Shown here piece by piece: positions 1 through 54,473 of a stretch of 64,000 nucleotides of DNA (within the stretch, counting starts at the first letter, position 1; the number at the start of each line of letters is the position of its first letter). Under the pieces are notes generated by a model. The model did no database searches and was not told where the DNA came from. It saw only the letters and a program-made list of their open reading frames with translations. The DNA is taken from contig NC_053118.1 in assembly GCF_010015445.1 (NCBI RefSeq), forward strand, positions 10,958,407 through 11,022,406. Reading direction: 5' to 3'. A program made the position numbers and the translations under genes. This DNA comes from Perca fluviatilis (Eukaryota; Chordata; Actinopteri; Perciformes; Percidae).

Positions 1-502
1 AAAGATGTCCGCATCCCAGGCGCTAAAGAAAGGCTGGTTGTATTATGAGGCTGGGCAGCGTTTCCTTGAGGTCCAATATTTGACTGGTGGACTTATTGAG
101 CCTGATGTCGAGAGCAGAGTGTCACTAGATGAATCTATCAAGAAGGGCACAATCGATGCCCGCACTGCCCAGAAACTGAGAGACGTCGGTTCTTATTCTA
201 AATACATAACATGTCCTAAAACCAAACTCAAAATCTCCTATAAAGATGTCATGGACAAAAGCATGGTCGAGGAAGGATCTGGCCTAAGGCTTCTGGAGGC
301 CTCCTCACAATCCAGCAAAGGCCTCTACAGTCCCTACAATGTCAGTAACCCTGGATCTGCCTATGGCTCCCGGACTGGCTCAAGGACCGGATCCCGAACA
401 GGCTCCAGGAGAGGCAGCATTGATGCTGGCTCTGGCTTCAGCATGAACTTCTCATCCTCCTCCTTCACATCCTCTTCAACTGGCTACAGCCGCAGATTCT
501 GA
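1..502 (+). CDS. plec: Plectin, last coding exon (C-terminal end, partial)
   Basis: This is the C-terminal end of a plakin cytolinker that binds intermediate filaments. The frame is open through the left edge of the window, so the ATG at position 5 is an internal Met and the exon starts upstream. Visible in order: the end of a plakin-repeat module (LTGGLIEPD, then DARTAQKLRD), a linker with CPKTKLKISYKD, the plectin-type stretch SMVEEGSGLRLLEA, then SKGLYSPYNVS, three GSRT units, GSRRGSIDAGSGFSM, a Ser-rich tail and a final GYSRRF. From memory, the order GSRT-GSRRGS-GSGFSM with a YSRRF-like end matches plectin better than desmoplakin, whose tail is GSRSGSR with an SSIGH end. The SRRGS serine is in a typical basophilic-kinase context. 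The stop is TGA at 500-502. No calponin-homology, plakin or rod parts are in the window. An epithelial dystonin C-terminus is the main alternative. Confidence 0.82.
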   Translation, partial: KMSASQALKKGWLYYEAGQRFLEVQYLTGGLIEPDVESRVSLDESIKKGTIDARTAQKLRDVGSYSKYITCPKTKLKISYKDVMDKSMVEEGSGLRLLEASSQSSKGLYSPYNVSNPGSAYGSRTGSRTGSRTGSRRGSIDAGSGFSMNFSSSSFTSSSTGYSRRF

Positions 503-2730
503 TTAGCTAGTTCTGTTCCTAACAAAAGCCCAAGTGTCTAAGAACCAACAGTAATAGTGCACTTTACAGTTGCATTTCTCAAAGGAAAAATAGTTACAGT
601 AACAGAGAAAATATAATTTATTCATTCTGCCCTGCATGTGGTAACATCAAGAATTGCCTAGGCTATTGATTTTTTTCCCCTATATAACAGGTGTCTAAAC
701 ATGTGCCTCATATATGGAGACATAACCAAGGATTGCTAGATATTACATTATTTTCCTTACTACTAATTACCGAGTCCGATTATATTTTTCAAAGCAAAGC
801 ATGACATTTCTGCTGTTTTTTTAAGTGACTTTATAGTTTTCATTTTACACAAAGTTGTACACTTGTGCTTTCTGAAACTAATATATACTGTATGTATGTC
901 AAAGAGATATTTTTTCAATATTCCTTTGAAATTCAAGGATAGTTGTCTATTTTTTATCTTTTTTCGACAGTACTTAATGAGATATCTACTGTATGTCAAC
1001 TTAGTTGTAACGTTTTTAACAGATTCTAAAATACATAGATGCCTTCACATTTCTGAAAATTTGTATAGAGTATGGACAGATTTTGTTATGTTTGTATGTT
1101 AAATGTTGCCTGGGTAACTATATAACACCCAATAAGAATACACCTGTTAGACACTACAAAATGAGACACTACAGGAATACAACACTGAGATGTGCCAGAA
1201 TTAAAATTACGCAGACCATTCTGAAACCAGTTTCACATCTGTCATTATTTTGTACTTAATGCCCATTTATATTTAGTGGACTTTTACTTCCTTTGGGTTT
1301 ACCATTGTTTTACACACTCCCAAGTTGTAGATTCTTTATATTCACCATCATTCAAGTGTTCCTGGTTAATCCCAAGATGATGTCAGAGTTGATCCTGCTC
1401 ACCCATACGGAACTGCGTCCTGTTATTTTGGTTCTTGTAAGTTGAAATAAGTTTTTTCTATTTTGTTTTGCTGTCTGTTTTCTTCAGTTGACATTGGTCA
1501 CATCTCAGGGCTTGGATTATGCCATTTTGCCCTACCCCACACACTACCATGATGATATCACTAGTAAACTATTTCTATAAAAAAAAAAAAATCTAATTTC
1601 TGCTGATTGACAGTTTTTATGTTTTTTTGCAGCAGCCCCTCAGAATCCAACATATCAGCAAAGATACTCAGATGGCCGGAGCATACGATCCCCTCAACTT
1701 GGATGGATTTGTGAGTCCATGTCATCCTCACGTAGTTTTACAGGTACAGTGTATAACTGTTTTTAAAAACATCATGTCATGATCATTTCATTTGCACAAA
1801 CATTAAGCTACTTTCCATCATGCATTTGCAGGTTTTATTTAAGTTGTATTTTTTTCTCGCTGCATGGTTTGGTTTATTTTGATTTTAATGCATAGTTATT
1901 TTTCTTTTATTTCTAGATCTACCATTGAGTATTTCCTTTCTTCCATTGCACATCACATTTGAAGAAAGCTGAGGCTGAGTCAACCTGACACCATCTTGGG
2001 ATACCTTTCTTGGAACACTCTTCATTCATTACTTTTTTTCATATATTTATTACTTGAACCCTAATAGTGTTGTAATGTTTTAGAGAACACTCCCCAATCA
2101 TACACACGTCTGCATTTGTATTCTTCCATTTAAATTGGCGTTAACTGTGGTGGTAGAGCAGCACATCTTCCTTTAGCTGCTCTTAAAAGTCCTCTCAGTA
2201 TATTTTTGTATTATCTCTCAGTAAATTCAGTCCTACCAAAGTGCTAAAACGATACATTTGGATAAGATATATTTGACACAGCACCACATTGCATGAATGT
2301 ATGTATTATATCAAATTAATTCATTTCAGTTGACATTTTGCCACATTTTCTTTTGCAAACTGAAAAAGAGCCTAACGATTTATTTTGCTTTATTTTTCCG
2401 CAGAAAGTATTTCTGTTATGTATCTCTAATGTGTTTTACCTCTGTAAATGTTTTTATTTTGTTTTCATCAAGTTTTTGATATATAATGAATTTGCCTTGC
2501 ATGTTTCACTAACTTTACAAACAAGTTTTTTTGGGGGGGGAAATGGTGATGTAAAATATAGACAACTGCAGATGTCACTGATTTTAAGTTTAAGAATATA
2601 TCAGTTCACAAACTAACTGGTTTGTTTTGCTTATGGGGCAGATTTTGCTTTGATGTGGTGAGTGGATTCTGTTGTATGTTCTGAACATTAACGCTATTTT
2701 GTAAATAAATATGCTCTGAAAAGGCCCTAT
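503..2730 (+). other. plec: 3' UTR of the plectin gene with poly(A) signal
   Basis: AT-rich non-coding sequence follows the stop codon. The first canonical AATAAA I find is at 2704-2709, so cleavage is expected near 2,725-2,730, giving a UTR of about 2.2 kb. A short purine-poor region with an A13 run at 1578-1590 precedes a possible splice acceptor at 1631-1632, described separately. No other gene is visible here. The 3' limit is inferred only from the poly(A) signal. Confidence 0.6.
1633..1972 (+). other. Candidate alternative C-terminal exon pair (1633-1743 and 1917-1972)
   Basis: Inside the presumed plectin 3' UTR there is a T-rich tract and AG at 1631-1632, an open stretch of 111 bases (phase 1 to phase 1), a donor GTACAG at 1744, and a second acceptor (T-rich, then CTAG) at 1915-1916. 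The second piece joins in frame and ends in TGA at 1970-1972. The joined peptide contains APQNPTYQQRYSDGRSIRS and ends in HITFEES. A weak donor (GTAACC) at 345-350 inside the plectin exon has the matching phase. Splicing there would remove the GSR tail and replace it with this peptide. I recognise no domain. It may be chance, because the open length is short and the upstream donor is poor. Confidence 0.25.
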
Positions 2731-3493
2731 TGTCATTCATACATCAATACACATACATCTGAAGCAAATTTAAGAGTGGAATGTTTTTTAGTGCTGCTTT
2801 CTTAAATTAAATAGGAACACTAATGACAATGAAAATAAGGCACTTCACATAATGCCTATTTTCCATCTCTCCATGTTAAAGCACAATGGAAGAACAGTTG
2901 TAGAGCTTGTTCTATATTTTAATATATGAGAAATATAGAAATATAAGTAATAGCTGAATGTCTTGCACATAGTGTATATGAAGGGTGATACCATTATTTT
3001 ACAATGTTTACCTTCTTTACCACTGCCTCTGTTGCTATTGATTAAATAGGTTTAATCATGCTTTGTGGTATTAATCTTCCCTCTGGAAAAAATCAGTAGT
3101 TGGCCACATGAGGGCAGTGTTATTCTGACGTACACTCACCCCCAAGAAAGCAAGTTAATCAGGTGAAACACAGCTACTTAGTCCAACACCTGCTCTACAA
3201 GTGATAATGTTATGAACCCACTGAGGTCTATGCCTGCTCTTATGATTCAGTATTTGTTGATCAATGAGGGTGTGGCTAGGTATTTGAAGGCTGATGATTA
3301 TAGAATACTATCTACTTAATACATGTTTTAGGTCCCCTTAAAAAATGGCCTGATGAGGGTGTAAAATACCCTGAATCACTATTTAAATCATTAGAAATCT
3401 CCTCTCCATTGAACATTACTTGTATGCTTGTGAATTGACACCCTGTTCCTTCGTACCAGAGATGCATATTTTTGCTCTTTGTGCCAACATTAG

Positions 3494-3631
3494 CCACTAG
3501 GTTTAATGGAGGAGCCTGCCAACAGAAGAAACGGGGCATTCACCTCCCAGAATTCTTCACTCAGCTCCCTTGACTACTCTGATCTGACCCTTTCCCTCCC
3601 AGCTCTCCCCGCAGAGGCTGTAAACAGGGAG
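3494..3631 (+). CDS. Candidate linker exon between plectin tail and spectrin rod
   Basis: Acceptor AG at 3492-3493 follows a T-rich tract, and a strong donor GTAAGA starts at 3632. The 138 bases are open in phase 0 and encode about 46 residues, including MEEPANRRNGAF and the Ser/Leu-rich NSSLSSLDYSDLTLSLPALP. The in-frame TAG at 3491-3493 lies just before the exon, so this frame is coding only if spliced. The end phase (0) fits the next candidate exon at 3803. No domain is recognised; it reads like a disordered Ser-rich linker of the kind found beside spectrin rods. It could also be an alternative first exon, since Met is the fifth codon. Confidence 0.5.
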
Positions 3632-3802
3632 GTAAGACCACAGAGAAGAGAGGTTACAAACACATCACCATATCCTGCAGTAATGAACTGTTGTTTAAAC
3701 ACTCTCAGCTCAAGCATCTGGAAATGCTAAATACAAGTCGGAAAAACACAAGAACAGATCTCTTTTTTTTTTTCTTCTTCTTCTTCCAATGGTCTATTGC
3801 AG

Positions 3803-3861
3803 GATCAAGGAAGTTCTTTGTTTGAATCACCAACACCTACATCACAGGATCAGAGATATGG
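3803..3861 (+). CDS. Candidate linker exon
   Basis: A long pyrimidine tract (T10 and CTT repeats) ends at AG 3801-3802, and the donor GTATGC starts at 3862. The 59 bases begin in phase 0 and encode DQGSSLFESPTPTSQDQRY plus two bases of a Gly codon. The single G at 4781 completes that codon. The peptide is acidic and Ser/Pro-rich with no domain. Support comes from the splice sites plus exact phase agreement on both sides, not from any recognised homologue. Confidence 0.5.
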
Positions 3862-4290
3862 GTATGCTAAAGTTTAAGATTATCATTCATTCTTCTTGAC
3901 TTAACTTGTGTATTTAAGTAAGTGCTAAATAAATAATAAAATTTAAATACTCAACCTTAAAGAAATATTAAGAGCAGTTTTGGATTATGACCAATGTAAG
4001 CACTAAACGTTCATCACACATGTAGATATTTTTGAATTGAACTTATTTTACATTTGAAGCAAATACTGTAATCCAAGTGAGACCTGTCTGATTGAAAGTG
4101 GCCACCAACGGTCAGATTAAAAGGAAACACGCAGCCTGTGACGGCAGTTGAATCAATTGTATCAGCTTTGTAGACCGGTGTGCCAGCAACACAAAGACAG
4201 AGCTATGAATTGTGAAGTGAGCACACAGTGTAAAACATCTAATTGAAACATACTGAAACAACAAAAACTAAGGTTTCAGCCCAGTGGCCA

Positions 4291-4308
4291 GAGAGAGAGA
4301 GAGAGAGA
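4291..4308. repeat. AG microsatellite
   Basis: A short run of AG units lies in the intron-like sequence between the 3,803 and 4,781 exons. Confidence 0.85.
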
Positions 4309-4780
4309 GCACATGCCTCCCTAATGAGATATTTGTCTATGCTCTGGTTATAGTGTCCTTTGATAAGAACAGTACTTATTGAAGGCTTTGTTTTACCTCT
4401 TCCTGCTGTTGTACATGTCATGACTTTGCTTTTGTGCCTGTTCCCACCATTATCTGCTTCCTGTCATCACAAGCATTCCAATTTCAACAGTATAGTAGGC
4501 ATTTGTATTCAGAGTCCTACAGTTATTTCACAAATGCACCGTATCACTATGAATGCAATGCCAATAATATAACTCAGCGCTATGCTGCCCATAATATGAC
4601 ACAACTAACCAAAAATATATGGATACATTACAGCAAAACATATTACCGATTTATCTCTATACAAACAAATTAATAATACGGCAGTAATTAACATTTCACT
4701 GACTAAACGTTTAGGATATTGGATTGTAAAATATGATTCCTATAACTCTTTACACTTCACATTGCTCCTCTCTGTTTTAG

Positions 4781-4892
4781 GAGGGATGTGGAGGACTTGA
4801 GTCAATGGCAGTGTGAGTTCAGGGGTCAAATCATAGCACTGAGACAGTGGCTGAAGAGCATGGAGATGCGGCTGCCTCCTCCGGACCCCAGG
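4781..4892 (+). CDS. Candidate exon: start of a spectrin-repeat-like helix
   Basis: Acceptor TTTTAG ends at 4780 and donor GTTAGT starts at 4893. The exon encodes RDVEDLSQWQCEFRGQ and then ALRQWLKSMEMRLPPPDPR. The pattern Q-W-L-x(3)-E-x(2)-L is the usual first-helix signature of spectrin repeats. The exon ends in phase 0, the same phase in which the exon at 19,172 begins. So a transcript skipping the 18.3 kb first exon could run 3494, 3803, 4781, 19172 without breaking frame. These exons may therefore be the 5' link of a long spectraplakin form. No further exon is visible between 4,893 and the promoter region at 14.5 kb. Confidence 0.55.
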
Positions 4893-5245
4893 GTTAGTTG
4901 GGTTTACTGTCTGTCTGCCTTCTGTTGTCTCTTTACCTTTTTCTGTTTCACTGTATCCCATGTTAAAGTTGTCATGTTAAAGTAGCATGTGTTTCATCAG
5001 ATCCTCCACCTGAGGTGACATTACTTTTTTTTTTTTCCCACAGCAAATGTTTAAGTTACTGAATATTATAAGGCATCAGTCACTTCAGTCTAAAAACATC
5101 AGAATTAGAAAAACAGAAGCTTGTTTTTATCATATTTTCTTATTATATTGTATTTTTTCTTGTACAATGTGTAGTATACAAAGGCAGTTTTACACTGTGC
5201 ATCCTGCCTATGTGAAAAGAAATCCATCTGTCATGTCACTGCTCT

Positions 5246-5247
<2 letters not shown>

Positions 5248-5294
<47 letters not shown>
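5248..5294. repeat. TC microsatellite
   Basis: A nearly perfect TC dinucleotide tract is followed by a degenerate continuation to about 5,305. Confidence 0.95.
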
Positions 5295-5301
<7 letters not shown>

Positions 5302-5399
5302 GTCCTTCAACCACAGTTGTTCTGAAGGCTACAAAGACACTTGTGGGGCCCTATGTTCTCATCACACTGAGAAACAATGCAACAATATTGCATCTAGGC

Positions 5400-6060
5400 C
5401 TCTAAAGCAAAGCTAGTGGCTCTCTACTTTGGCACAGCCGTGCTTAAAGCTGAATGCTAACGTCAGCATGCTAACATGTTCCCACTTACAATGCTAGCAT
5501 GCTGATGCTAAGCAGGTGTTATGTTTACTATGTTCACCATCTTAGTTTTGCGTGTTAGCATGCTAATATAAATATATATCAAGTAAAGTGTTAGAAAAAT
5601 CAAATATTGACTTGAAAATGGTGCTAGAAAAGTGTATCATGTGCAGAACATAAATGCCTACAACATTTCATGGCAATATAGTTGAAAGACATTGCACTCG
5701 AAAACTGCAAATGTCAACCTCATGGTAGCGCTATTTGATAAGTCAGGGGATCAATAAAATCAGTGTTCTACATCCTCTGGGGACCATGGGGCAAGTCATC
5801 TACTAGTTGTTGAGATATTCCCTTCTGGGCCAAAGTGGTAGACTAACGAAAGACACTTGCTAGCATGGCTAAAAAAAGGATTACAATGGCCCATTGTGAG
5901 GTAAGACAGTGAACAAACAGACTGAAAATGCTCCACTTGAAGATGGTTTAAATCTTGCACAGTGAAAAGAACGTGCACTACCACATGTCGGTTCAACTAT
6001 TGCGTGGGCAGTGAGGAACCTGAATGTGACTCCAAATGTAGTCAGTGAGTTGTGTTCAAT
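5400..6060. repeat. Dispersed fish repeat with GCTAGCATGCTAA motifs
   Basis: The palindromic GTTAGCATGCTAA-type words occur several times here. They recur with similar flanks (mention of a price-like GGGACCATGGGGCAAG block aside) at about 12,960-13,060 and 53,850-54,180. Orientation here appears opposite to the 53.85 kb copy. No coding capacity is seen. The family is not identified by name; boundaries are approximate. Confidence 0.55.
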
Positions 6061-8566
6061 GTCATTCATATAATCCACCGTTCCCATGGTGCAGGGCAAG
6101 CATGCGTAACAGAGATGCTTTAGAATCCATGTGCTGGGAGAAAAATGCTGTCTAATGCTTTATCTTACATATGATTTACTGTACCTGTGATGGAATTACT
6201 GCATTTATGAAAATGCGTATTAACCATAATCATTAGAATAGTTTTTTCTTCTAATGTTTTTCCTATGAAGTCTCTCTGTACCTATAGCATGTATGTATTG
6301 TATTAGCTACTGCAACATCCTACTTTCCCGGTGGAGATCAGTACAGATTGAGATCTTATGTCATTTTAACAGTAACTGGCACCTGTAAAGATTATCTGAC
6401 ATGTTCTGATAAAAGAGCAAATAGGAAAATTAACCAATGAGTCATGCTAGTGAGTATAAAAACACTGAAGTTAATTGAGCATTATGGAAAAGAGGAAAGG
6501 GATTGTGGAGTCCGACATACTCAGACGGATACTGAGGTGGTCCTCCTCCACTCCTGCCGAGAAACTTCTTTAGGCCACAGGGAGACAGAGGGGTTGGGGA
6601 ATCAGGCTCCATTGTGCCTGGCCTGGACAGCCAGGCTAGAGAAGTGCTTGGCACTGGAGGCCCTCTGCACACATGAGCACACACGCTGAAAAGACATTAG
6701 ACTCAGATGCGAGGAAGGGGCAAGGGGACAGAAAAAAAGAAAAGCAGGATCTTTATGGTAAGAGCACTCAGATCTGACTATGGAGGCATTTATTGAACAC
6801 CAACTGTAGATTTTGCCATACAACCATTTATACCAATATTTGTACAGTGATTTGTCAGTCAAAGCTGCAGCCAGAATTTTTTTTTTTTTACCAGTTGGGT
6901 TAAAAATCTCTGGGCAATTTTGTGCTGAGTACTTTGATGAATGACAAGCATGAATAGCAAATACAACTTTGATCAAAATAGTATTTTGATTTATGCAAAT
7001 TTGTGGTCACAGTAGGTCAGCTAACAAGCTAACCTTAGCACTAGCATTGCTAATGTCAACTACTTCATCTCCCCATGGCCCTTTTCCTATCAGTCTAATT
7101 AGTCATTAAACCTGTTGTGCTTACGTTCCTCCCATCATGTCTAACTCAACCAATCAGATTAATCTCCAAAGCAGCTCTGTCTGTGATACATGTTTGCGTT
7201 ACTAAAACTCTGATTTTGCTGATTGGATATTGTTAATTTATACAATGGACCAATTCAGCCTTTAGATAAGAAACATTTCCATTGAGCTTAATTACGTGAT
7301 GAAGCTCCGCAGTGCAGCGAGATGGTGAGGTAATAATTTATTTAAATATCCTTAGTGAAGGATGACTGCACCTTCTTCAATGAACTGTGAATCAATTACA
7401 CAAAGGGATTGAAAGGGTTTGTTGTTTGTATTGTTATAGTAAAAATAGTTTTTGGCTGATTTAGTTTTATGGTCTATTGAAGTAGATGTGTTCCATAGTC
7501 CTGACTGAATGTCTGAGCCACTAATTGATTGTATGGTCAAAAAGGCCAATGAGACAAAATACGATCTGTTTGAACCCGAATGACCCCTTTGCAGGAACTT
7601 ACTGACTACCATCTACCGTATTATTGAGAAAACATTCTTCAACGTAGGACGCTCTTAGTTAAAAAAAAAATTTCCCTGGGGACTGACGTGTGAGATGCAC
7701 AGGCATGTCTTATCACGTCATGAAAGCCCAAACGCTTTGGAGAGCTGTAGTGTGACCCCCAATGAAAGTGTGTAAAGTAAGGGGGTGTATTTTTTTTTAC
7801 CTCCGCAATGCCTTTATCATACTGCATCCGACCTTAGTCCTTTGTCATGGTAATGCTGTTAGTCTACTGCACTGCTGGTTTAAGTCTGGGCCTGAGGGAC
7901 TCGTTAGTTAGCTGGATGAATGCGGGCAGCCCCCCCACATACAGACCTTCTACAATACACAGGAGAGAGACACACACACACACCTGCTCCTTAACACAAG
8001 GCATGCACTGGCACATCTTAAACTGTTTTTCCCATAAATACTGGGATACACCTTACGGACCACGAAAGCCTAAATATGAAAAGAGATTAGACCAAGAACT
8101 CAAAGAACAAATCATCAGTTCACTAATGATCAAATTTGTGGGTTTGCATAATTTGCTACAAAACGTTGAAGTTAGCTAATACAAACAAATGTTAAAATAT
8201 ACTACATCAGATCAGGATACTTAGATTACACTTGACATTTCATCTGATATCACAGTAGCTCTTCCACAAGGTCTATTCAGTAGCTGCTCTGAAGCTTTCA
8301 ATCGTATCACACGATCTGCTTCCTCAGCAGATGGAGTTGCCCTTTAGGATTTATTTAACAAAGGACCAACTTACGGAAGATTGGGTGATACAATCGAAAG
8401 CTCCAAAAGAGCTCCAAAAGATTTTATTCAGCTATTTTTCTCAGACAAAGTCACATGAAATCACCTCGTCACTGTTTAATATTTGTAAGATAGAGATATT
8501 AAACAGACAGACGTAAAGGGTGACCAATAGCAATGATTTACTATAGCCACAACCAATTCACTACCC

Positions 8567-9124
8567 AACCCGTTCTCACTCCCAACTCGTAAAATACTGA
8601 TCAGCGTCAGATACCGGCGAAAAAAATCACCCTTTAGCGTCTGTATGGAGCGCACCGGGCATAACAGCAGCTCGACTGCGGCGCTGTAAGATGACGTAGT
8701 ATAAAGAGCGACAACGGTAGCGAGTAGTATGAAAGACCAAACATTTGTAAATGGAGGTTGGTTGGGGTGGTGGATGGGTCAAACAACACATGACTTTCAC
8801 ACAAAGGACCGGGTTTCATGTCTCGCACGTGTCCCGGGTGTCACCGAAACGTACATTTTGTAACGTCACCCACAAACTTTTCCTAACTCTTAGTGTCTCG
8901 TTCTTGTGCCGCATGTGAGTTTAACTTACGTCCTGAACCAGAGTGTCAAAAAGTGATGCTGACCCAGAGCGTCATGAAGTGACGCCAAGAGTCCCAAAAC
9001 GAGCGTGTCAAAAGTCGACGCCAAGGGGCTAGCTGCTACAGGAGCTGCTCTTTGCGTCAGCAACAAACGCCAAAGGCACCTGACCAAGCGTTGCTTTTTG
9101 ACGCGCTGGGAGTGAGAATGTGTT
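8567..9124. mobile_element. Inverted-repeat non-autonomous DNA transposon
   Basis: The left end carries CGTTCTCACTCCCAACTCGT. The right end at about 9,100-9,124 carries ACGCGCTGGGAGTGAGAATG, its imperfect reverse complement. The interior is CG-rich compared with the surroundings, has repeated GTGACGC/AGCGTC words, and has no transposase frame. This is a MITE-type element about 0.56 kb long. Confidence 0.7.
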
Positions 9125-11583
9125 GCACTACCAGCTACGATGAGCCAAGTGGTATTGACACAAATGCAAACTTGACCAGAGACCGGCAGTATTGTGCGCA
9201 TGAAATCCTTACACATCTGAGTAATAGGGAAATTAGGATGTCTTTTGATAGCAATTTTAACTTCCTTTTTACATTGTGTTAAAATAGTATGACAATGACA
9301 AGTCAAAATGACATCTCTTCGCTTTAGGTTAAGGTCAAAATATCTTTCTGCTTCCTTGCCCCCCTGCTAGTGAGGATCTTCTGGATAAAGGCTCTCTCTG
9401 TTGAGGTTTCTGCTGCATCCCAAATACGACTTGTATACACACGTTATAAACAGGCCCCAGGAAGAGGGGGGAGAGATCACAGCCTATTATCCTCTCCTCT
9501 CTGTTTCTGACAGCCAGCAAACACCATCCCTGCTCTCTGACGCTGTCATAACCTTAAAGGACAAAAAAAGTGGGGCTTGTTTTCGTTGCTGTGAATCACC
9601 TACAAGACAAATGAATAATGCCCAGATGGCGGTAAAGTAAACGCGTTTATTCTACAGAGTTGAGTTAAATGTTATATTCAGTTGAGTTTTCCTCTATCTT
9701 GGCCTGTCAAATTGATTTTCATCTTATAGCACTTTAGGTAATCTCTCCCATAAGAGATTCTTTAATTCACACACTTTATCAGGGTTAATGGCAATGTGGG
9801 GCCTCTTCCTTTATTGCCCCTGTTTTCCTGTGCTCAACGGAAAATGTGGACTCATGGCTGTAAATCCTCTCTTCCTGGGAGCCGTTGAATCGAATGCAGA
9901 GCTGATGATGAGTTGAGCTCTTCTATCCCAAAGTGGCTAAATCTTGTCTCACACATGGCTGTGATTTCCAGCATCCAGGCAGCCCAGCAGGGTCCAGGCA
10001 ACCCAGTGGGGAAGCCCTTCAGCCTTTCATCCACTTTTCTTGGAAGCAACCTCTGTTGGTGATAAATGACAGTGTGCATGCTGAATGGTGCTTCTGGTTT
10101 GACCCTTAAAAGGGACCCCCTCTTTTTTCATTTCTCATGAAGAAGGCTAATTACCATGTTCTGTAGAGGAGCCATTCAATTTGAAGGCAGCAGAGGTTGA
10201 GATAGCAGAGGAGGGGGAAAACAAGCCTGTAAAATTCATCAATTTCCATCCAAGATCAAATGTAGGCTCCCGTTGGACGCTAATTTGGAATTACATTAAT
10301 TTTGGAAACTCACTTTATTCCATCTCCCAACCGTTGTCTACTCCATTAACGCACGTATTTTGGAAGGATGAGGGCTGCTGACGGAAAGATTAGCTTTTTT
10401 TCTTGCAGCCAGTAGCAGCTTATTGCATCAGCGTGCCAGCTGCTCTTTAACCACATCAGCTCGTCTTTTTAAGAACTGTGTGCAAGGCTCTATGTGCACC
10501 TACCATGAAATGGAGAGGAGAGATTTTTGGCAAAATCATTTAATTAGTACAGAGGGGACTGGAGGATGCTGAAAGCTGGGATCAGGTGTCATGGTTTGAC
10601 AACAATGTCCTCCTGGAAAAAGTAGTGCCTCATCACTGCCAGCTCCTTTCAGACAAAGAAAGGGGGGTCGGAGAATGTGGGCCTTACTTGCTCATTAAAC
10701 AGCTAAAGACATTAGCTCTCCAAGTGACCCAAAGAAACAGCTATGTTTGTGTGTGTGCATTTTATTTTATTTTATTTTTTTTACAGTTTACCAGTCTGAG
10801 CTGTTTCTTTTCAGCTAACAGGGTTCATCATGTATGCCTGAATTGTTTTTTGTACTACTGTACATCTCCAAGGTTGTGAGATACAGGATATCTTTTGTAG
10901 CATAATCAAGGGGAGACTGGGAACTCTTACATCAGCACTATAGTACTCAGGGCTTAATAACTTGACCCCACAGGTGTCATTCTATTTAATTCACCCTCTC
11001 TCTCTCTCTCGACCACAGTGACAGGCATTTTCAGTTTTCGTTTTTCTTCTTTTTTATCGGTATTTGCATGAATTAAGGCTGGAGGAGGGTGGGGGTAAAA
11101 AATGGGACAGTAATGTAAGGAGCAGAGGATAGCTCTGAAAACCTGAATCAGCTTCAAAGCAACATTAATAGCCTATTTTCACCAGCAGCAGTATCCTTAG
11201 TGCCAATTCATTGAGGTTTTGAATGTTATTGAATGAACAGGGACACTAAAATTATACTGTTTTAAAATAGGTAATATTGATTGATTTTTTTTAATTATTA
11301 GTTGGGCGCTTTGTGTGACAACTGGTAGAAAATGTTCTCAACACCCACATGTAATTATTAAAATCTTAACTTTGACTAATCATAGCTAAGCCTCATCACA
11401 TCCACATTCAACTGACTAAGAAAAAGTGCCTTGTTTTATGATTGTTTTGTAACAATAGCAGCATGTTTGTAGGGTAGGCATTATGATCCAGACTGAAATA
11501 TCTAAATAACTATTGGATGGGTTGTCATACAAACTTTGTTCATACATTTGTGGTCCCCAGAGGATCAACCACTTTGCTCAGAC

Positions 11584-12802
11584 TGATATCATGAAGTGGC
11601 GTATGTATGACATGCCAATTCGTATATGCCATTATTGGCGTGTTATCAAGACGCATACTCGTTTTTAGCGTGTTTATCAAAGCCGTTTGGCCTCCATTGA
11701 CTTACATTACCTTGCGATTGCATGTGAATTGATGCCGTAGCAAGTAGTGTGAAAGGGTGACTTTTACCCAGGAGAGCAGGGATCAAGTCCTGCGTGTGAC
11801 TTTGTGTCCTGCGTGTGAGTTTTCCTTTCAATGTTTGTTGTTTTCCTAAACCCAACCAGTTCTTCTTTTCCTAAACCCAACCCGCGTGTGACGTTTCCTA
11901 AACCCAACCCCGTTCTTCTTTTCCGAAACCCAACCCGCGTGTGACGTTTCCTAAACCCAACCCCGTTCTTCTTTTCCTAATACCAACCAGTTCTCCTTTT
12001 CCTAAACCCAACCCACGTGTGACGTTCCTAAACCCAACCGTAGCTTCGTGATAACACGTGGCCTCGCGATAACACGCCACGTGGCTTTAGAAAGTGCTAC
12101 GTGGACGTTTCCTAAACCCAACCCCTTTTTTTTTTTCAATTTTTTTTTCCCCCCCCCCCCCTTAACCCCCCCCCCTTTTTTTTTAAACAAAAATTTTTTT
12201 TTTTAACCCCCCCCCCCCCCCAACTTTTTTTTTTATTTCTCCCCCCCCCCCCCCCTCTAATACCAACCAGTTCTTCTTTTCCTAAACCCAACCCGCGTGT
12301 GACGTTTCCTAAACCCAACCCTGTTCTTCTTTTCCTAATACCAACCAGTTCTTCTTTTCCTTAACCCAACCCGCGTGTGACGTTTCCTAAACCCAACCCC
12401 GTTCTTCTTTTCCTTAACCCAACCCGCGTGTGACGTTTCCTAAACCCAACCCCGTTCTTCTTTTCCTAAACCCAACCCGCGTGTGACGTTTCCTAAACCC
12501 AACCCCGTTCTTCTTTTCCTAAACCCAACCCGCGTGTGACGTTTCCTAAACCCAACCCCGTTCTTCTTTTCCTAATACCAACCAGTTCTTCTTTTCCTAA
12601 ACCCAACCCGCGTGTGACGTTCCTAAACCCAACCGTAGCCTCGCGATAACACGTGGCCTCGCGATAAGACGCCACGTGGCTTTAGAAAGTGCCACGTGGA
12701 GTGTATGCTTACGCTGTGACTTTGCAGACTGCTGTCCGCTGTATAACACGCCACTTTGCTTTAGGAAAGTGGTGTGTATGTTTACGCGGAGTCATGATAT
12801 CA
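11584..12802. mobile_element. Inverted-repeat element carrying a minisatellite
   Basis: The ends TGATATCATGA (11,584) and TCATGATATCA (to 12,802) are reverse complements. Next to each lies a GTGGCGTATGTATG-like word and its inverted counterpart. Flanking sequence on both sides resembles the GTTAGCATGCTAA repeat family (compare 53,880-54,080), so this unit seems inserted into an older repeat. The interior from about 11,840 to 12,690 is the tandem array annotated separately. No transposase frame is seen. Confidence 0.6.
11840..12690. repeat. Minisatellite with CCTAAACCCAACC core, interrupted by homopolymer tract
   Basis: Tandem units alternate between TTTCCTAAACCCAACCCCG plus TTCTTC, and TTTCCTAAACCCAACCCGCG plus TGTGACG. 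Together they form a higher-order unit of about 50 bases. A block with CTCGCGATAACACG and GCCACGTGGCTTTAGAAAGT occurs twice, at about 12,058-12,100 and 12,655-12,697. Between 12,124 and 12,256 the array decays into long runs of T and C. Those runs may be real slippage or a sequencing and assembly artefact. Confidence 0.85.
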
Positions 12803-14449
12803 CGTTGCTTTGCGACAGATGTTCAAGGTCCCTCAAGAAAATATTCTGACTATGGGCCTAAATTTGAATTTCCCCAATACCTTGATTTATGACCCAATGC
12901 AGTAGAGTACATGCGAATCGAATGACATTCCCATCAGCTGTACATTGTGTTTGATGCTAAATAACAAATGTTAGCATGCTAATTAAGGACTAAACTAAGA
13001 TGGTGAACATGGTAAATATCACTGCTAAAGATCTGCATGTTAGCATTTAGCTCAGATCACCACTGTGCCTAAGAACTAGCATGGCTGTCTTTGTGTTGTT
13101 TAGTGACACAACCTTCAAAATTCCATTGTCTTTACCAACAAAACTTAATTTAACTATTATTACTTATTGTTATATTACTTATTACTGTTATTTTCTGAAA
13201 GGCATAAACCCTGCATGGAGCTCTTGCAGAATATACTGGACTTAAGTCTTTGTTAATGGTTACATTGCCATACATGATCCTGTGGCCCAAACCAATTTAA
13301 TCAGGATTGTGCACACATCTTTTGCTGAATAAACCAAGTTTGCATTGACAGGTTCAAAGACATTTCCACTCACATGTAACACAGAAGGCACTTTACACTG
13401 GAGCGAGTGGTATTGATTATATATTTTCTGAGGTGATATACTACACATTGCACAGGGGAATGCAAGCAGAAAGGCACATGAACATATCTCCTCCTCATAG
13501 AAGATATTATCGTTTCTGACTGCACTGCTGAGAGATTAAATACAGGCACAGGATGTATTTGATGTAAAACGATATAGCATAAAAATGTGAACTATATGTG
13601 ATTGTTTATTGAAGAGTCAATGGTATGGTCCTTCAGATGCGTTCTCCTTTAACTCCTTTAAGTGACCTCATGGATTAGAGAGAAGGCTGAGTGGCAGCCT
13701 TGCATGCATGCAGATGCGTGTGTGCGTGCGCGTGTGTGTGTGTGTGTTTATTGGCGAGACTGTATGAGAGAGTGTGTGGGTGTGTGTACTGGACATGGAT
13801 GCACGCAGTTGGTGGATCAGTCAATTAGTTGATTATTTGGTTGGCTGGAGAAAGACAGAAGGAAATGACTAAAGAGGGCAGGATTTGGGGCATTAACACT
13901 CTTTGTGACACAGTCACCTGTATGCATGCTTCTGTTGGGTTTTGGTGCACCTGCACGCTACATCATTTCCAGAAAGATATTTCTGGTGTATTAAAACTAG
14001 TGTACACCAGTGAATGTTGCTCTAATGGTGTTTGCATGCAGTATGCTTGGTGTTCTGAATTTCTAAGGCAAATATTGTGACTTATTGAAATAGGGCATGA
14101 TAGAATTTCTCCATAGGGGTCCTTCCTTTGCTTTCCCATGCCAAAAGCAGAGAAAAGACTCTGTATTATCTTCCCATTGCGCTATTTTGTGTGTTTGCTT
14201 CCAGCCTCTTTGTTTATGGGCTGGGTTTGCAATGGCTGGAACTGAGTTGAAAAGTAATCTGAGATGTTTTACAGTAATTAGTCGTCTTTGTTGCTGCTGT
14301 GGAGACTGCTGCACTGACTCTGAATGGGGAAGGGGGGACTGCAATGGGGTTGGGGGTGAATGTGTGAGTGGGTGGGTAGCAGGGTGGGTGTGGGTCCCTT
14401 CTTTTGTAGCCTGCACTTCTCTCCCTCGCCATCCAGAGAGGGAATGGAC

Positions 14450-15272
14450 GGAGGCAGCTGTCACTTAACATGTGAATGTTCCGAGGGCGGCCCAGGGGTC
14501 TTTAGAAAACTCTCCTTTTTTTGCCCCCCACCCATTCCATTTTTCAAGCAGAAGCAGCATGGAGTTTCTGAGCCACAGTCAGACCCAGAGGAGGGGCTTT
14601 GTTGGATGAGAAGGGGGAGAGAGTGAGAGAAAAAGCCTGGAGAAGGTAAAGGGGGCACTTTGCCGCCTCGCTGCCTGGTACAGGAGCAACCTGAGCAGCA
14701 GCAGCGCTGGTGAGAATGCCATCGCCTTCCCGTTAAATGGAACCGGCTCAATCTGACCTCAATGTGAAAACTGCACTTGGCTGGGAACTGTGGGAGTTCA
14801 ACTGAGCCGTTGGAATACATTGTCTCCATCTGGGCGCACTATCCCATCGGCTATAACACAAGGAAGGAATTCCTCTATCACAGCTCCCACAACAAAGAAG
14901 AAAGGGAGAGGAGCAGAGCTGGTGGGAGGAGAAGTGAAGTAAGGGGAGGGGAGGGGTGCACTGTGAGGGGAGAGGAGGACATTGTTTGCCTGTGTCTGTG
15001 GGCAACGGAAAAGCAGGAGTTATCAGGGCATGTGTGAGTGTGTTTAGAAAGTGTGTTTGTATGTGTAAATGAGTGTACTAGATTGAGGTTTGTGGACGGA
15101 GTATGCATGTGTATGTGTGGAGTGTTCATTTTTGGGATGTTGGAGCCGGGAGGCCATTCAAAGGATGCTCAAACAAAGCCGGATTTTTTTTTTTTTCTCT
15201 CTCCTTTTTGAATGGTGATTGAGGACTTGCTGGATTCCTTTACTCAGGCTGTTTGGCTCAACTGTGCTTCAG
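14450..15272 (+). promoter_or_regulatory. Probable promoter and non-coding first exon of the short spectraplakin form
   Basis: This stretch is richer in G, GA tracts and CG than its surroundings, unlike the AT-rich flanks. It ends in a good donor, CTTCAGG followed by GTAAGT at 15,273. The next acceptor that reaches a credible start codon is the T-rich tract ending in TTTTAG at about 18,224. I infer transcription starts somewhere in 14.5-15.2 kb, with a 5' UTR exon ending at 15,272 and a first intron of about 2.95 kb. No clear TATA box is placed with confidence. The exact start site is unknown. Confidence 0.45.
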
Positions 15273-18224
15273 GGTAAGTGTGGTTAACGTAAGCTTCAAA
15301 CCGCCAAAACTGCCAGTAACCCAGGATTGGCTAACAGAGAGTTTGCTTTTGGACTTTGTTATTGAGGGAGCCATGTGACATTAAATTAGTTGTGACTGCA
15401 GGATTTTCTTCACTTATTCTAACCAAAGTGTGGCAGGCAATGAAATATTCCAGTAGAGACAACATCAGTGTGAATGGATCATTCTGGTGTAAGTATATTT
15501 TATTCAGTTCAACAGTTTGTTCTTTGTAAACAGTCTCTTAGCTGCCTGGATTTCATGAAAGGATGCAGAATACTGATCAACATTTTAACATATCTCAGTC
15601 GACTTGGCCACTTTCTATAACTATTGAATTTTTGCCAAAGCCATGCTGACATTAGATTACATACAGTAGCTTTGTGTTGCATGTTTAGAGGGCTGTCTTC
15701 GAGAGAAGCATGTGACCTTGTACAATATCCACCTTAAAATGTTATGAGTCTCATGGGTGAATGCACAGCTGCCATCCTTGATTAGGGACCACTACCATGA
15801 TTACTACTCCAGGACCTCCCTTAACAGAGGCAGACACATAACAGACACACAATATTATAGGGCTCTGCTGTTGTGATTGATGATTATTGTTCTGCTACTA
15901 ATTACAAATACACCCATACAATGCTTCTTGTGTCATGTAAATGGAACACTCGATGCAATACAAACAAAAAACAAACAAGACTTTCAATACATGCACATAC
16001 GCATCTCCCATATTGAGATTTAGATAAGAATTACACATGAAATGTAAAACCGAAGTATCTGGAAACGATAATATTAGGATTTATTTCTTTCATATTTTGT
16101 TTTGCATTGCGAAGCAGCTATACTATGTTTGTAATCAAATTCATTAGGAAATTGACTGCGGTCATGTATCATAAATCACTGTTGAGAGCAAAGAAAGGGC
16201 TGTCTGAATTAAGGGCCATTTCCAAATAGGTTAAGTAATGGGATGGGCAGGTCATCCGCAATATGAGTTAAATGGTGGAGTGGTTCTCTGGTTCCCTGGT
16301 TCTCCTTCTAGTATCAATAGTATAATGCTAGAAAGTGAAGTGCATATCAGATACCGGCTTAAGGCATTTTGAGAGGGTGTCTCTGGTTTGCTTTGATTGT
16401 AGAATAATGTAGATCATGGTATTATTAAAGTATATTATTATATGTGAGGGCTACAAAATGATTAAAATGCCTTTTATTAAAAAAGTATGTTGTATATCAG
16501 CGTGTTGCCCAGTCTAGTAGATATAGAAAAACAATATATTTGCATATTTATGTTTATAACATATCCCCGGTAGTCATTTCTGCTCACTCTAATGAGACTA
16601 CTCAGCATATCCTCACATACGTTGCTGCAAGATCACTGAACAGGCAACTGTGTAATTTAGCAAACGACCACACATGTGCTGCAGTAACCAGACACGGCAC
16701 ACCCTCTCTCTTGAATTGTTAACCCATATGAACACGGCAACAGACACTCTCTCTGCCCTCCTCAGGAGACCGCTGGGCAGTGATCTGAGCTAACTGGGTA
16801 ATCATTGATCTTGAGGCTGGGTCTTTGTCTGGGCACCACTCTCTGATCCGACTGTGTTCTCCCCCGTGGATCCATTGACTGCATCATCTGCTCTGCAGAG
16901 ACATACATGATGTAGGTAATTACTAGACTAATGCACATGGAGCCATCATATCCAACTAGGTCATTTTTAAGATTCTCATTTAGTTAAAAGCCGTGATGTA
17001 TCTTTATTATAATAAGATTCATGTTTGTGAGACGCACAAATGAGATTTGATTCAAACATGGGGTGGATCTCGACAGCAGCACAATGCAAAGTTCTACTTA
17101 GCGGCCGACTGTCTTTGTGTATATCCTCTGGCAAAGATAAGAGAGCTGCATATTCAGCATAGTTCTGTTTGCCTACTGTACCCATACGACATCCCAATTT
17201 CCCCTTTGTTGACCCATATTGGACCCCCCCCACAGATCTTTAGCATGACCTGAGGTGACCTGTATGATTCTGAGTGGAGCAGTCCAACCCCGCCTCAGAA
17301 GGAGGACCCGGCCTCGACAGGAACCCTCCCTGTGATCTCCTGATGGGCTCACCTCAGCTCCTCTAGACCAAGATAATTGCTTTCACCTTTAACCCTTCTG
17401 TCAAAACAATGAAGGCACTGAGCTGAGGGGGAAGCAGGCGGGCTGACACAGTTTGAAATTGTCACTGCCAATGAGTCTTTTCAGTAATGTACTAATTTTG
17501 GTCAAACAATATGTTGACATCTGACATCACGGTTGGATTCAAAAGCGTAATTCAGTGATGTAGTAGTGAGAGGAAAGCCCTGTATCCTACAAGCTCCCCT
17601 TGGTAATCATTATGGAATAGCATTCATTTGAGCTTTTCTCCATAAAAACACCATCACTTTATACTGCACACTAAGGTATACTGTTGATTGCTGCTGTTTT
17701 CCTATCTACCCCCCATTGCCTCCATGCCATCCCCCGTTATTGTCACCCCTGAGAAATGAGGCGATGTCTGCCTTTTTATGGCTGTCATATTTGATCAGAT
17801 CCTTAACGGGTTTCCCAGGGCTGGTCCAGGCCGAGTTAGGGAAAGAGCTGGCCGGTTGCCACTGGTTTAGCGTGCCAGGCTCAACAGTGGGATCCTCGAC
17901 AAGCCTGTCACATTGATTTCTAAGCCCAGAAAATTTCATTTGGTGATGTGAGATAGATGGGGAGCATGTGTGTATGTGGTCTAAAGGAAGACAAAGGGAC
18001 AGGGAATATCCAGGCCAAGTATCTCTGCTGTAGTTCCCGCTGGTCTTTCAGTGCCAAGAAAAGGGCAACATCACACAAAAATGTAGCAAATAAAGGATGT
18101 GAGAGACGATGTAAGCTGTGGCAAGCAATACTAAAAAAATCAGTGGTATAATTTTTATGTTGTTTTACACTATCAACACTTGTTCACTGCATGATGACCC
18201 AGAGCCCCCCTTGTCTTATTTTAG
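15273..18224. other. Putative first intron of the short form
   Basis: No coding signal is seen on either strand. The sequence is mixed and mostly unique, with no obvious transposon ends. It is bounded by donor GTAAGT (15,273) and acceptor TTTTAG (to 18,224), which makes it an intron if the non-coding exon is real. Confidence 0.45.
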
Positions 18225-18304
18225 GTAGCTGAAGGATCTTCCGCATGCATGGCCGAGGGGCCTTACCTCACCTATTACCTCACTAGCCTTGGGGCTGAAG
18301 GATT

Positions 18305-42127
<23,823 letters not shown>

Positions 42128-54180: not shown

Positions 54181-54473
54181 GCAATGCCCTTAAATACAGC
54201 CTCACAGAGGTGTCTACGGCTTGCATGGCTGCATAACAGACCAGACAATTGGCTTATTTCGAATCAATGTTGTAAAAAAATCTATTAGAGCTGGATAAAG
54301 CTAAAATGCTTATATTACACTTAATAAAATATCAAACTGAAACTTCCCCTTCAATTAATTGTCTTCATGTTTTTCTAGATTTTGGTGAAGTTTTGCATAC
54401 TAATTGAACTGTCCTATGTTGTGTCTGTATTCCAGATTGCATACTTCTACATTTCCTGATTCCTGCCTCCATC

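What the first reader, a model, noticed from the sequence alone, without database searches (positions are those of the whole stretch)
1..42127. Plectin C-terminus followed directly by a complete spectraplakin tail: a possible third vertebrate spectraplakin
The sequence shows a plectin-type C-terminus with its own stop at 500-502. On the same strand, 18-42 kb in, lies a long spectrin rod, two EF-hands and a GAS2 domain. In mammals these belong to MACF1 and dystonin; plectin ends after its plakin repeats. The module differs at many positions from what I recall of both, for example DRDQDGRISQKE and RILDVFRSIDRDQ in the EF region and a short tail. The riboflavin transporter next door fits the human PLEC neighbourhood (SLC52A2 is also on 8q24.3) rather than MACF1 or DST. 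I infer that plectin was once a spectraplakin and that some fish retain its microtubule-binding end.
Basis: partly seen in the sequence, partly recalled or inferred. Interest (0 to 1): 0.93.

Follow-up and report, generated by a model that had tools for sequence, protein, structure and literature searches.

The report
Plectin's detached microtubule-binding tail gene
Directly behind plectin this fish carries an intact-looking gene for a spectrin, EF-hand and GAS2 protein that forms a third line beside MACF1 and dystonin, occurs from fish to marsupials, was first reported in 2022, and is likely the split-off tail of an ancestral plectin that would tie microtubules to membranes.

Summary
Bases 2-502 are the plectin C-terminus; 18,305-42,127 hold a 39-exon, stop-free 2,116-aa spectrin-rod/EF-hand/GAS2 gene. 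It is no MACF1 or dystonin duplicate: in an unrooted 31-row tree the 23 tail rows (percid to platypus and opossum) lie on one side of a 100/100 branch, MACF1 and DST on the other.

The gene is not new. It was reported in 2022 as MACF1CTL, beside PLEC in fish, amphibians, sauropsids, monotremes and marsupials and lost in placentals, with a gene-fission hypothesis (PMC8782857).

What I add: (1) four in-phase exons (1,633-4,892), starting 1.1 kb after plectin's stop, splice into exon 2 and skip the MGN exon, so two alternative N-termini exist, one with a predicted myristoylation site; (2) the EB-binding SxIP motif is in 111 of 115 DST/MACF1 rows but 1 of 173 tail rows, so lattice rather than plus-end binding is predicted; (3) plectin-named models of gar and bowfin contain the whole tail. 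Whether any mRNA joins plectin to the tail is untested.

The parts
2..502 (+). C-terminal coding part of the last plectin exon (plakin repeats, GSR tail, stop at 500-502)
1633..1743 (+). exon L1 of the alternative upstream N-terminus; open in frame throughout, with an ATG at 1672
   Evidence: tblastn of orthologue N-termini, splice sites and phase
3494..3631 (+). exon L2
3803..3861 (+). exon L3
4781..4892 (+). exon L4, SQWQCEFRGQIIALRQWLKSMEMRLPP segment, like the first helix of a spectrin repeat (weak match)
18305..18961 (+). exon 1, alternative first exon MGNLISRPSC..., in-frame stop three codons before the ATG
19172..37143 (+). exons 2-32: short linker and spectrin-repeat rod
37505..39020 (+). 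exons 33-34: two EF-hands (DRDQDGRISQKE, DMNSDGFIDYYE)
39114..39508 (+). exons 35-36: nearly all of the GAS2 domain
40942..42127 (+). exons 37-39: short serine-rich C-terminus without SxIP, stop codon
54408..55514 (+). neighbouring gene, riboflavin transporter of the SLC52 family (large open frame)

Best explanation
The module is this fish's copy of MACF1CTL, a spectrin-rod/EF-hand/GAS2 gene that groups apart from MACF1 and DST and sits directly behind plectin; it is likely the split-off 3' half of an ancestral plectin-type spectraplakin and is predicted to bind the microtubule lattice through GAS2 while one of two alternative N-termini would tether it. Shown here: the intact 39-exon model; four further in-phase exons starting 1.1 kb after plectin's stop; two kinds of N-terminus among orthologues; no CH or plakin domain in the tail protein; near-complete absence of SxIP; a separate group that spans ray-finned fish, lungfish and tetrapods. 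Inferred: that the MGN exon yields an acylated protein holding microtubules to membrane without its own actin-binding domain; that the L1-L4 N-terminus is the product of a second promoter or of splicing from plectin; that PLEC and the tail descend from one gene, as PMC8782857 proposed.
For: Stop-free 39-exon model with spectrin, EF-hand and GAS2. Orthologues of about 2,100 aa in ray-finned fish and in amphibians, lungfish, sauropsids, monotremes and marsupials. All 23 tail rows on one side of a 100/100 branch, DST 6 and MACF1 2 on the other. Plectin-named models with the tail in Amia and Lepisosteus, plus one unnamed model. MACF1 and DST are closer to each other than to plectin in the N-terminal part (58% against 49-51%) and than to the tail in the C-terminal part (69% against 41-42%). 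MGxxx[ST]RPxC in 111 of 183 tail proteins, at residue 1 in 104. Both EF loops canonical in 160 of 183, GAS2 core pattern in 173 of 183. SxIP after GAS2 in 1 of 173 tail rows against 111 of 115 DST/MACF1 rows. In Drosophila Pigs, Gas2 with mutated SxIP motifs shifts to the lattice (passages of PMC4732294).
Against: No transcript, protein or localisation data. No outgroup, so the order of the three lineages is unrooted, and only 2 MACF1 rows (both sharks) are in the tree. A looser Sx(I/L)P occurs in 28 of 173 tail rows. 8 further tail proteins have RPSC but not Ser/Thr at position 6, among them platypus, echidna and turtles, so the myristoylation motif is not uniform. 17 of 31 tree rows fail the composition test. 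The three joined models do not share one junction: gar and bowfin agree, P0122 differs.
Confidence: 0.7

Rival explanations
1. Plectin and the tail are still one spectraplakin gene: the tail is reached by alternative splicing past plectin's stop into L1-L4 or exon 2, and the MGN exon is an internal promoter, much as DST makes BPAG1e and BPAG1a/b (that analogy is recalled).
For: Three joined models. L1 lies 1.1 kb after the plectin stop and before the first AATAAA at 2,704. The best-scoring GT in the plectin exon (after base 340) is in phase 0, as L1 needs, and scores 0.9 against a median of 1.6 and a minimum of -2.7 for the tail's own donors on a crude matrix. Orthologue peptides aligning to L1 extend upstream of the window's ATG. 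PMC8782857 notes a joined zebra finch model.
Against: Gene prediction can chain neighbours: P0254 joins the tail to downstream plakin repeats. Junctions differ between models. An ATTAAA at 1,200 could end plectin before L1. No RNA was examined.
Confidence: 0.3
2. A later partial copy of MACF1 or another spectraplakin tail landed beside plectin by chance and was never part of plectin.
For: Plectin's coding frame ends before the tail, and an unrooted tree cannot exclude it.
Against: Same strand and same order as the domains of a spectraplakin. The tail predates the split of ray-finned fish from lungfish and tetrapods and is reported beside PLEC in elephant shark. Both halves show MACF1 and DST as the closer pair.
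Confidence: 0.15
3. An ordinary teleost duplicate of macf1 or dst.
For: Databases name the orthologues MACF1 isoforms 6/7, MACF1 isoforms 1/2/3/5 or dystonin-like.
Against: Polypterus, sturgeon, lungfish, frogs, birds, platypus and opossum have it, and it lies outside MACF1 and DST at 100/100.
Confidence: 0.02
4. A pseudogene or an assembly or gene-building artefact.
For: One GC-AG intron; no transcript data.
Against: 2,116 stop-free codons over 39 exons, 97% identity to Etheostoma with one small gap, and full-length orthologues across bony vertebrates.
Confidence: 0.01

Closest known systems
MACF1CTL (MACF1 carboxy-terminus-like), PMC8782857
   Same: Beside PLEC; spectrin repeats, EF hand and GAS2; in fish, amphibians, sauropsids, monotremes and marsupials (passages and discussion read)
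   Different: The passages read describe it as uncharacterised; the two N-termini, the MGN motif and the SxIP loss were not in them. In this window the next gene found is an SLC52 transporter; EPPK1 is not seen.
MACF1 and dystonin (DST) C-terminal half
   Same: Spectrin rod, EF-hands and GAS2; EF 67% and GAS2 78% identical to the MACF1 structures
   Different: About 40% identical over the rod to GAS2 region; no SxIP in the window's copy and in 172 of 173 tail rows; shorter C-terminus (median 103 against 234 aa); no CH or plakin domain
Plectin
   Same: Neighbour on the same strand; joined with the tail in three database models
   Different: Its own frame ends at 502 after the plakin repeats
GAS2-family +TIP Pigs (Drosophila)
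   Same: GAS2 domain binding microtubules (passages of PMC4732294)
   Different: Pigs tracks plus ends through SxIP and has a CH domain; the tail protein lacks both

Membership tests
MACF1CTL | Lies beside PLEC on the same strand | tested here: met
   plectin end at 2-502 and tail from 1,633 on, both + strand
MACF1CTL | Spectrin repeats, EF hand and GAS2 similar to the MACF1 C-terminus | tested here: met
MACF1CTL | Orthologous to the vertebrate tail group | tested here: met
   one side of a 100/100 branch with 22 other tail rows; the paper's own sequences were not fetched
MACF1CTL | EPPK1 on the far side (tetrapods) | tested here: inconclusive
   the next gene found is SLC52; the paper puts zebrafish EPPK1 beside the other plec; bird P0254 shows plakin repeats after the tail
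Spectraplakin (full protein) | CH actin-binding pair and plakin domain | tested here: not met
   absent from the 2,116-aa tail protein; present only in the joined models
Spectraplakin (full protein) | Spectrin rod, EF-hands and GAS2 | tested here: met
MACF1 or DST orthologue | Groups inside that clade | tested here: not met
EB-dependent plus-end tracker like MACF1/DST | SxIP motif after GAS2 | tested here: not met
   none in the window's protein; 1 of 173 tail rows, 111 of 115 DST/MACF1 rows
N-myristoylated protein | Initiator Met, Gly2, Ser/Thr6 at the N-terminus | tested here: met
   MGNLIS at 18,305 with an upstream in-frame stop; the meaning of the motif is recalled
N-myristoylated protein | Acyl group on Gly2 in cells | not testable with these tools
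   needs labelling or mass spectrometry

The most novel reading that the evidence does not exclude
Outside placental mammals plectin is still a full spectraplakin: one locus makes plectin, a membrane-anchored (MGN) microtubule-lattice tail without actin or EB binding, and, by splicing past plectin's stop into exons L1-L4, a protein of 6,000-7,000 residues that links intermediate filaments to microtubules; placentals lost that half.
Probability: 0.3. Interest if true: 0.8.

Novelty: new member of a known kind. Interest (0 to 1): 0.55.

Why it matters
Plectin is usually read as an intermediate-filament and actin linker (recalled). A conserved neighbour that encodes a microtubule-binding half, found here in zebrafish, frogs, birds and opossum and reported lost in placentals (PMC8782857), means that common model animals have a plectin locus with an extra arm that mice and people lack. 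It explains why databases call these genes MACF1 or dystonin. It also offers a natural test of what a spectraplakin tail does without actin or EB binding, and makes the question whether plectin began as a spectraplakin directly testable by RNA and rooted trees.

Tried and rejected
Teleost duplicate of macf1 or dst: rejected by the tree and by orthologues in non-teleosts. Left edge as a MACF1/DST epithelial exon, or as desmoplakin: plectin 2n03 is the best PDB match, about 17 bits above desmoplakin. The MGN exon as a DST/MACF1 exon: SRPxCLG and EVTEVTE occur in none of the 115 fetched DST/MACF1 rows, most of them bird DST. Papers on an acylated dystonin isoform: two searches showed nothing relevant in what they listed (2 of 2, 10 of 52). 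A plasmid search of one exon found nothing, as expected.

Left undone: GAS2 genes of the same genome (genome search, unanswered), so MACF1 and DST of this species were not located. No invertebrate outgroup, no structure prediction, no transcript. Placental absence rests on the paper: the 120 listed hits of 415 name no placental, but the list ends at 2069 bits and the marsupials scored 2125-2149. No shark tail is in those lists; the paper reports elephant shark. The donor scores are crude.

Full report
What is there. The window opens in the last exon of plectin (2-502; PDB 2n03 plectin, E 1.2e-60). From 18,305 to 42,127 on the same strand I built a 39-exon model by reading splice sites: 2,116 aa, no stop, 37 GT-AG introns and one GC-AG. 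Pfam finds spectrin repeats, EF-hands and GAS2, and lists neither a CH nor a plakin domain. A riboflavin transporter of the SLC52 family follows at 54,408.

Relatives. A protein search (352 hits, 120 listed) returned proteins of mostly about 2,000-2,100 aa from ray-finned fish, from Etheostoma cragini (97%) to zebrafish (73%), eel (71%), sturgeon (66%) and Polypterus (63%), named mostly MACF1 isoforms 6/7 or 1/2/3/5, some dystonin or dystonin-like, one plectin b. A second search admitting longer proteins (1,212 hits, 120 listed) put three plectin-like models first: unnamed P0122 (6,217 aa, 81% over the scored part), plectin of Amia ocellicauda (7,013 aa, 75%) and plectin of Lepisosteus oculatus (6,717 aa, 77%). 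Their precomputed Pfam lists hold PF00307 (CH) and PF00681 (plakin repeat; both names recalled) together with spectrin and GAS2. The same list held a bird protein, P0182, at 68%, while the dystonins and shark MACF1s in it are at 51-53%. A third search with that bird protein (415 hits, 120 listed) gave birds, alligator, turtles, lizards, frogs, axolotl, lungfish, platypus, echidna, opossum and Antechinus besides fish. No placental is named among the 120, but the list ends just below the marsupial scores. Sorted by best match, the 298 fetched proteins are 183 tail, 106 DST and 9 MACF1; the least clear is P0293, with a tail-to-other bit ratio of 1.08. The 106 DST rows are mostly birds and the 9 MACF1 rows are all from two sharks.

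Tree. 31 rows (the window, 22 of the other 183 tail proteins, 6 of 106 DST, 2 of 9 MACF1), 1,774 columns, LG+C20. All 23 tail rows lie on one side of a 100/100 branch, DST and MACF1 on the other; within the tail, ray-finned fish (100/100) stand apart from lungfish plus tetrapods (96/92). Three inner branches are weak (Polypterus against sturgeon, the place of Paramormyrops, Ambystoma with Xenopus), and 17 rows fail the composition test. So the gene was very likely present in the bony-vertebrate ancestor and is not a teleost duplicate. The shark MACF1 rows are closest to the MACF1 structures (97.6-98.8%; DST 86-94%), which bears out their label. MACF1 and DST resemble each other more than they resemble plectin (58% against 49-51%) or the tail (69% against 41-42%), which fits one ancestral gene. 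Without an outgroup the root stays open.

Two N-termini. MGxxx[ST]RPxC occurs in 111 of 183 tail proteins, at residue 1 in 104; eight more have RPSC without Ser/Thr at position 6. Other proteins start with a different sequence holding a WQxEFRxQIxxLxxWLK segment (19 of 299 proteins by pattern, none among the 115 DST/MACF1 rows). That second kind maps in the window to four exons, L1-L4, at 1,633-4,892, whose phases run into exon 2 at 19,172 without a stop. L1 begins 1.1 kb after plectin's stop and before the first AATAAA (2,704), although an ATTAAA stands at 1,200; it may lie inside plectin's 3' untranslated region. In this window the MGN exon has an in-frame stop three codons before its ATG, so that ATG is a true start. 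Gar and bowfin models share, by eye, a conserved stretch between plectin's GSR tail and the spectrin part, while P0122 joins elsewhere. The best-scoring GT in the window's plectin exon is in the phase that L1 needs, with a middling score on a crude matrix. Joining is possible, not shown.

How it probably works. Both EF loops are canonical in 160 of 183 tail proteins and the GAS2 core pattern is present in 173 of 183; DST/MACF1 have both in 115 of 115. GAS2 is described as sufficient for microtubule binding (passage of PMC9145010). The SxIP motif is in 111 of 115 DST/MACF1 rows and 1 of 173 tail rows; a looser Sx(I/L)P is in 28 of 173. In Drosophila Pigs, a Gas2-containing piece with all Sx(I/L)P motifs mutated shifted to the microtubule lattice (passages of PMC4732294). 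BPAG1a/b associate with EB1 and EB3 (title in the listing, PMC4171495). With no CH domain, the MGN form would not bind actin through that route and would hold microtubules to membrane through an acyl group. These steps are predictions; what the MGxxxS motif means is recalled.

What is known. PMC8782857 (passages; [quoted passage not shown] A search for MACF1CTL finds that paper only. A search on plectin, spectraplakin and gene fission from 2021 on listed 15 of 34 papers, and by title none of the others is on this idea. The two N-termini and the SxIP loss were not in the passages I read; its supplements could not be read.

Verdict. A real gene, rightly noticed and rightly set apart from MACF1 and DST, already in print in outline, with a split-or-still-joined question that RNA can settle. 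I file it as a MACF1CTL orthologue, not as a full spectraplakin protein, because the tail protein lacks the CH and plakin domains.

Noticed in passing
P0058: A 25.5-kb contig filed under the lamprey Lampetra planeri encodes a tail protein 89% identical to this percid's, which looks like fish DNA in a lamprey assembly.
   Followed up: no
P0254: A 4,546-aa bird model (Willisornis vidua) runs from the MGN start through GAS2 into plakin repeats (matches at 1,982-4,338), probably the tail joined to the epiplakin gene reported downstream.
   Followed up: partly
window 18305-18961, towards the end of exon 1: EVTEVTEVTETTVTEIVEVTEY: the repeat EVTEVTE is kept in 115 of 183 tail proteins and in 0 of 115 DST/MACF1 rows; function unknown.
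   Followed up: partly
P0272: A turtle (Platysternon) tail protein is named neural retina-specific leucine zipper protein, a plain misnaming.
   Followed up: no
P0289, P0292, P0298, P0299: The monotreme and marsupial copies share a long stem branch (0.43 changes per column) and odd composition: fast change in the mammals that keep the gene.
   Followed up: no
window 4781-4892: Exon L4 weakly resembles the first helix of a DST spectrin repeat (E 0.003), perhaps the remnant of a lost repeat upstream of the rod.
   Followed up: partly
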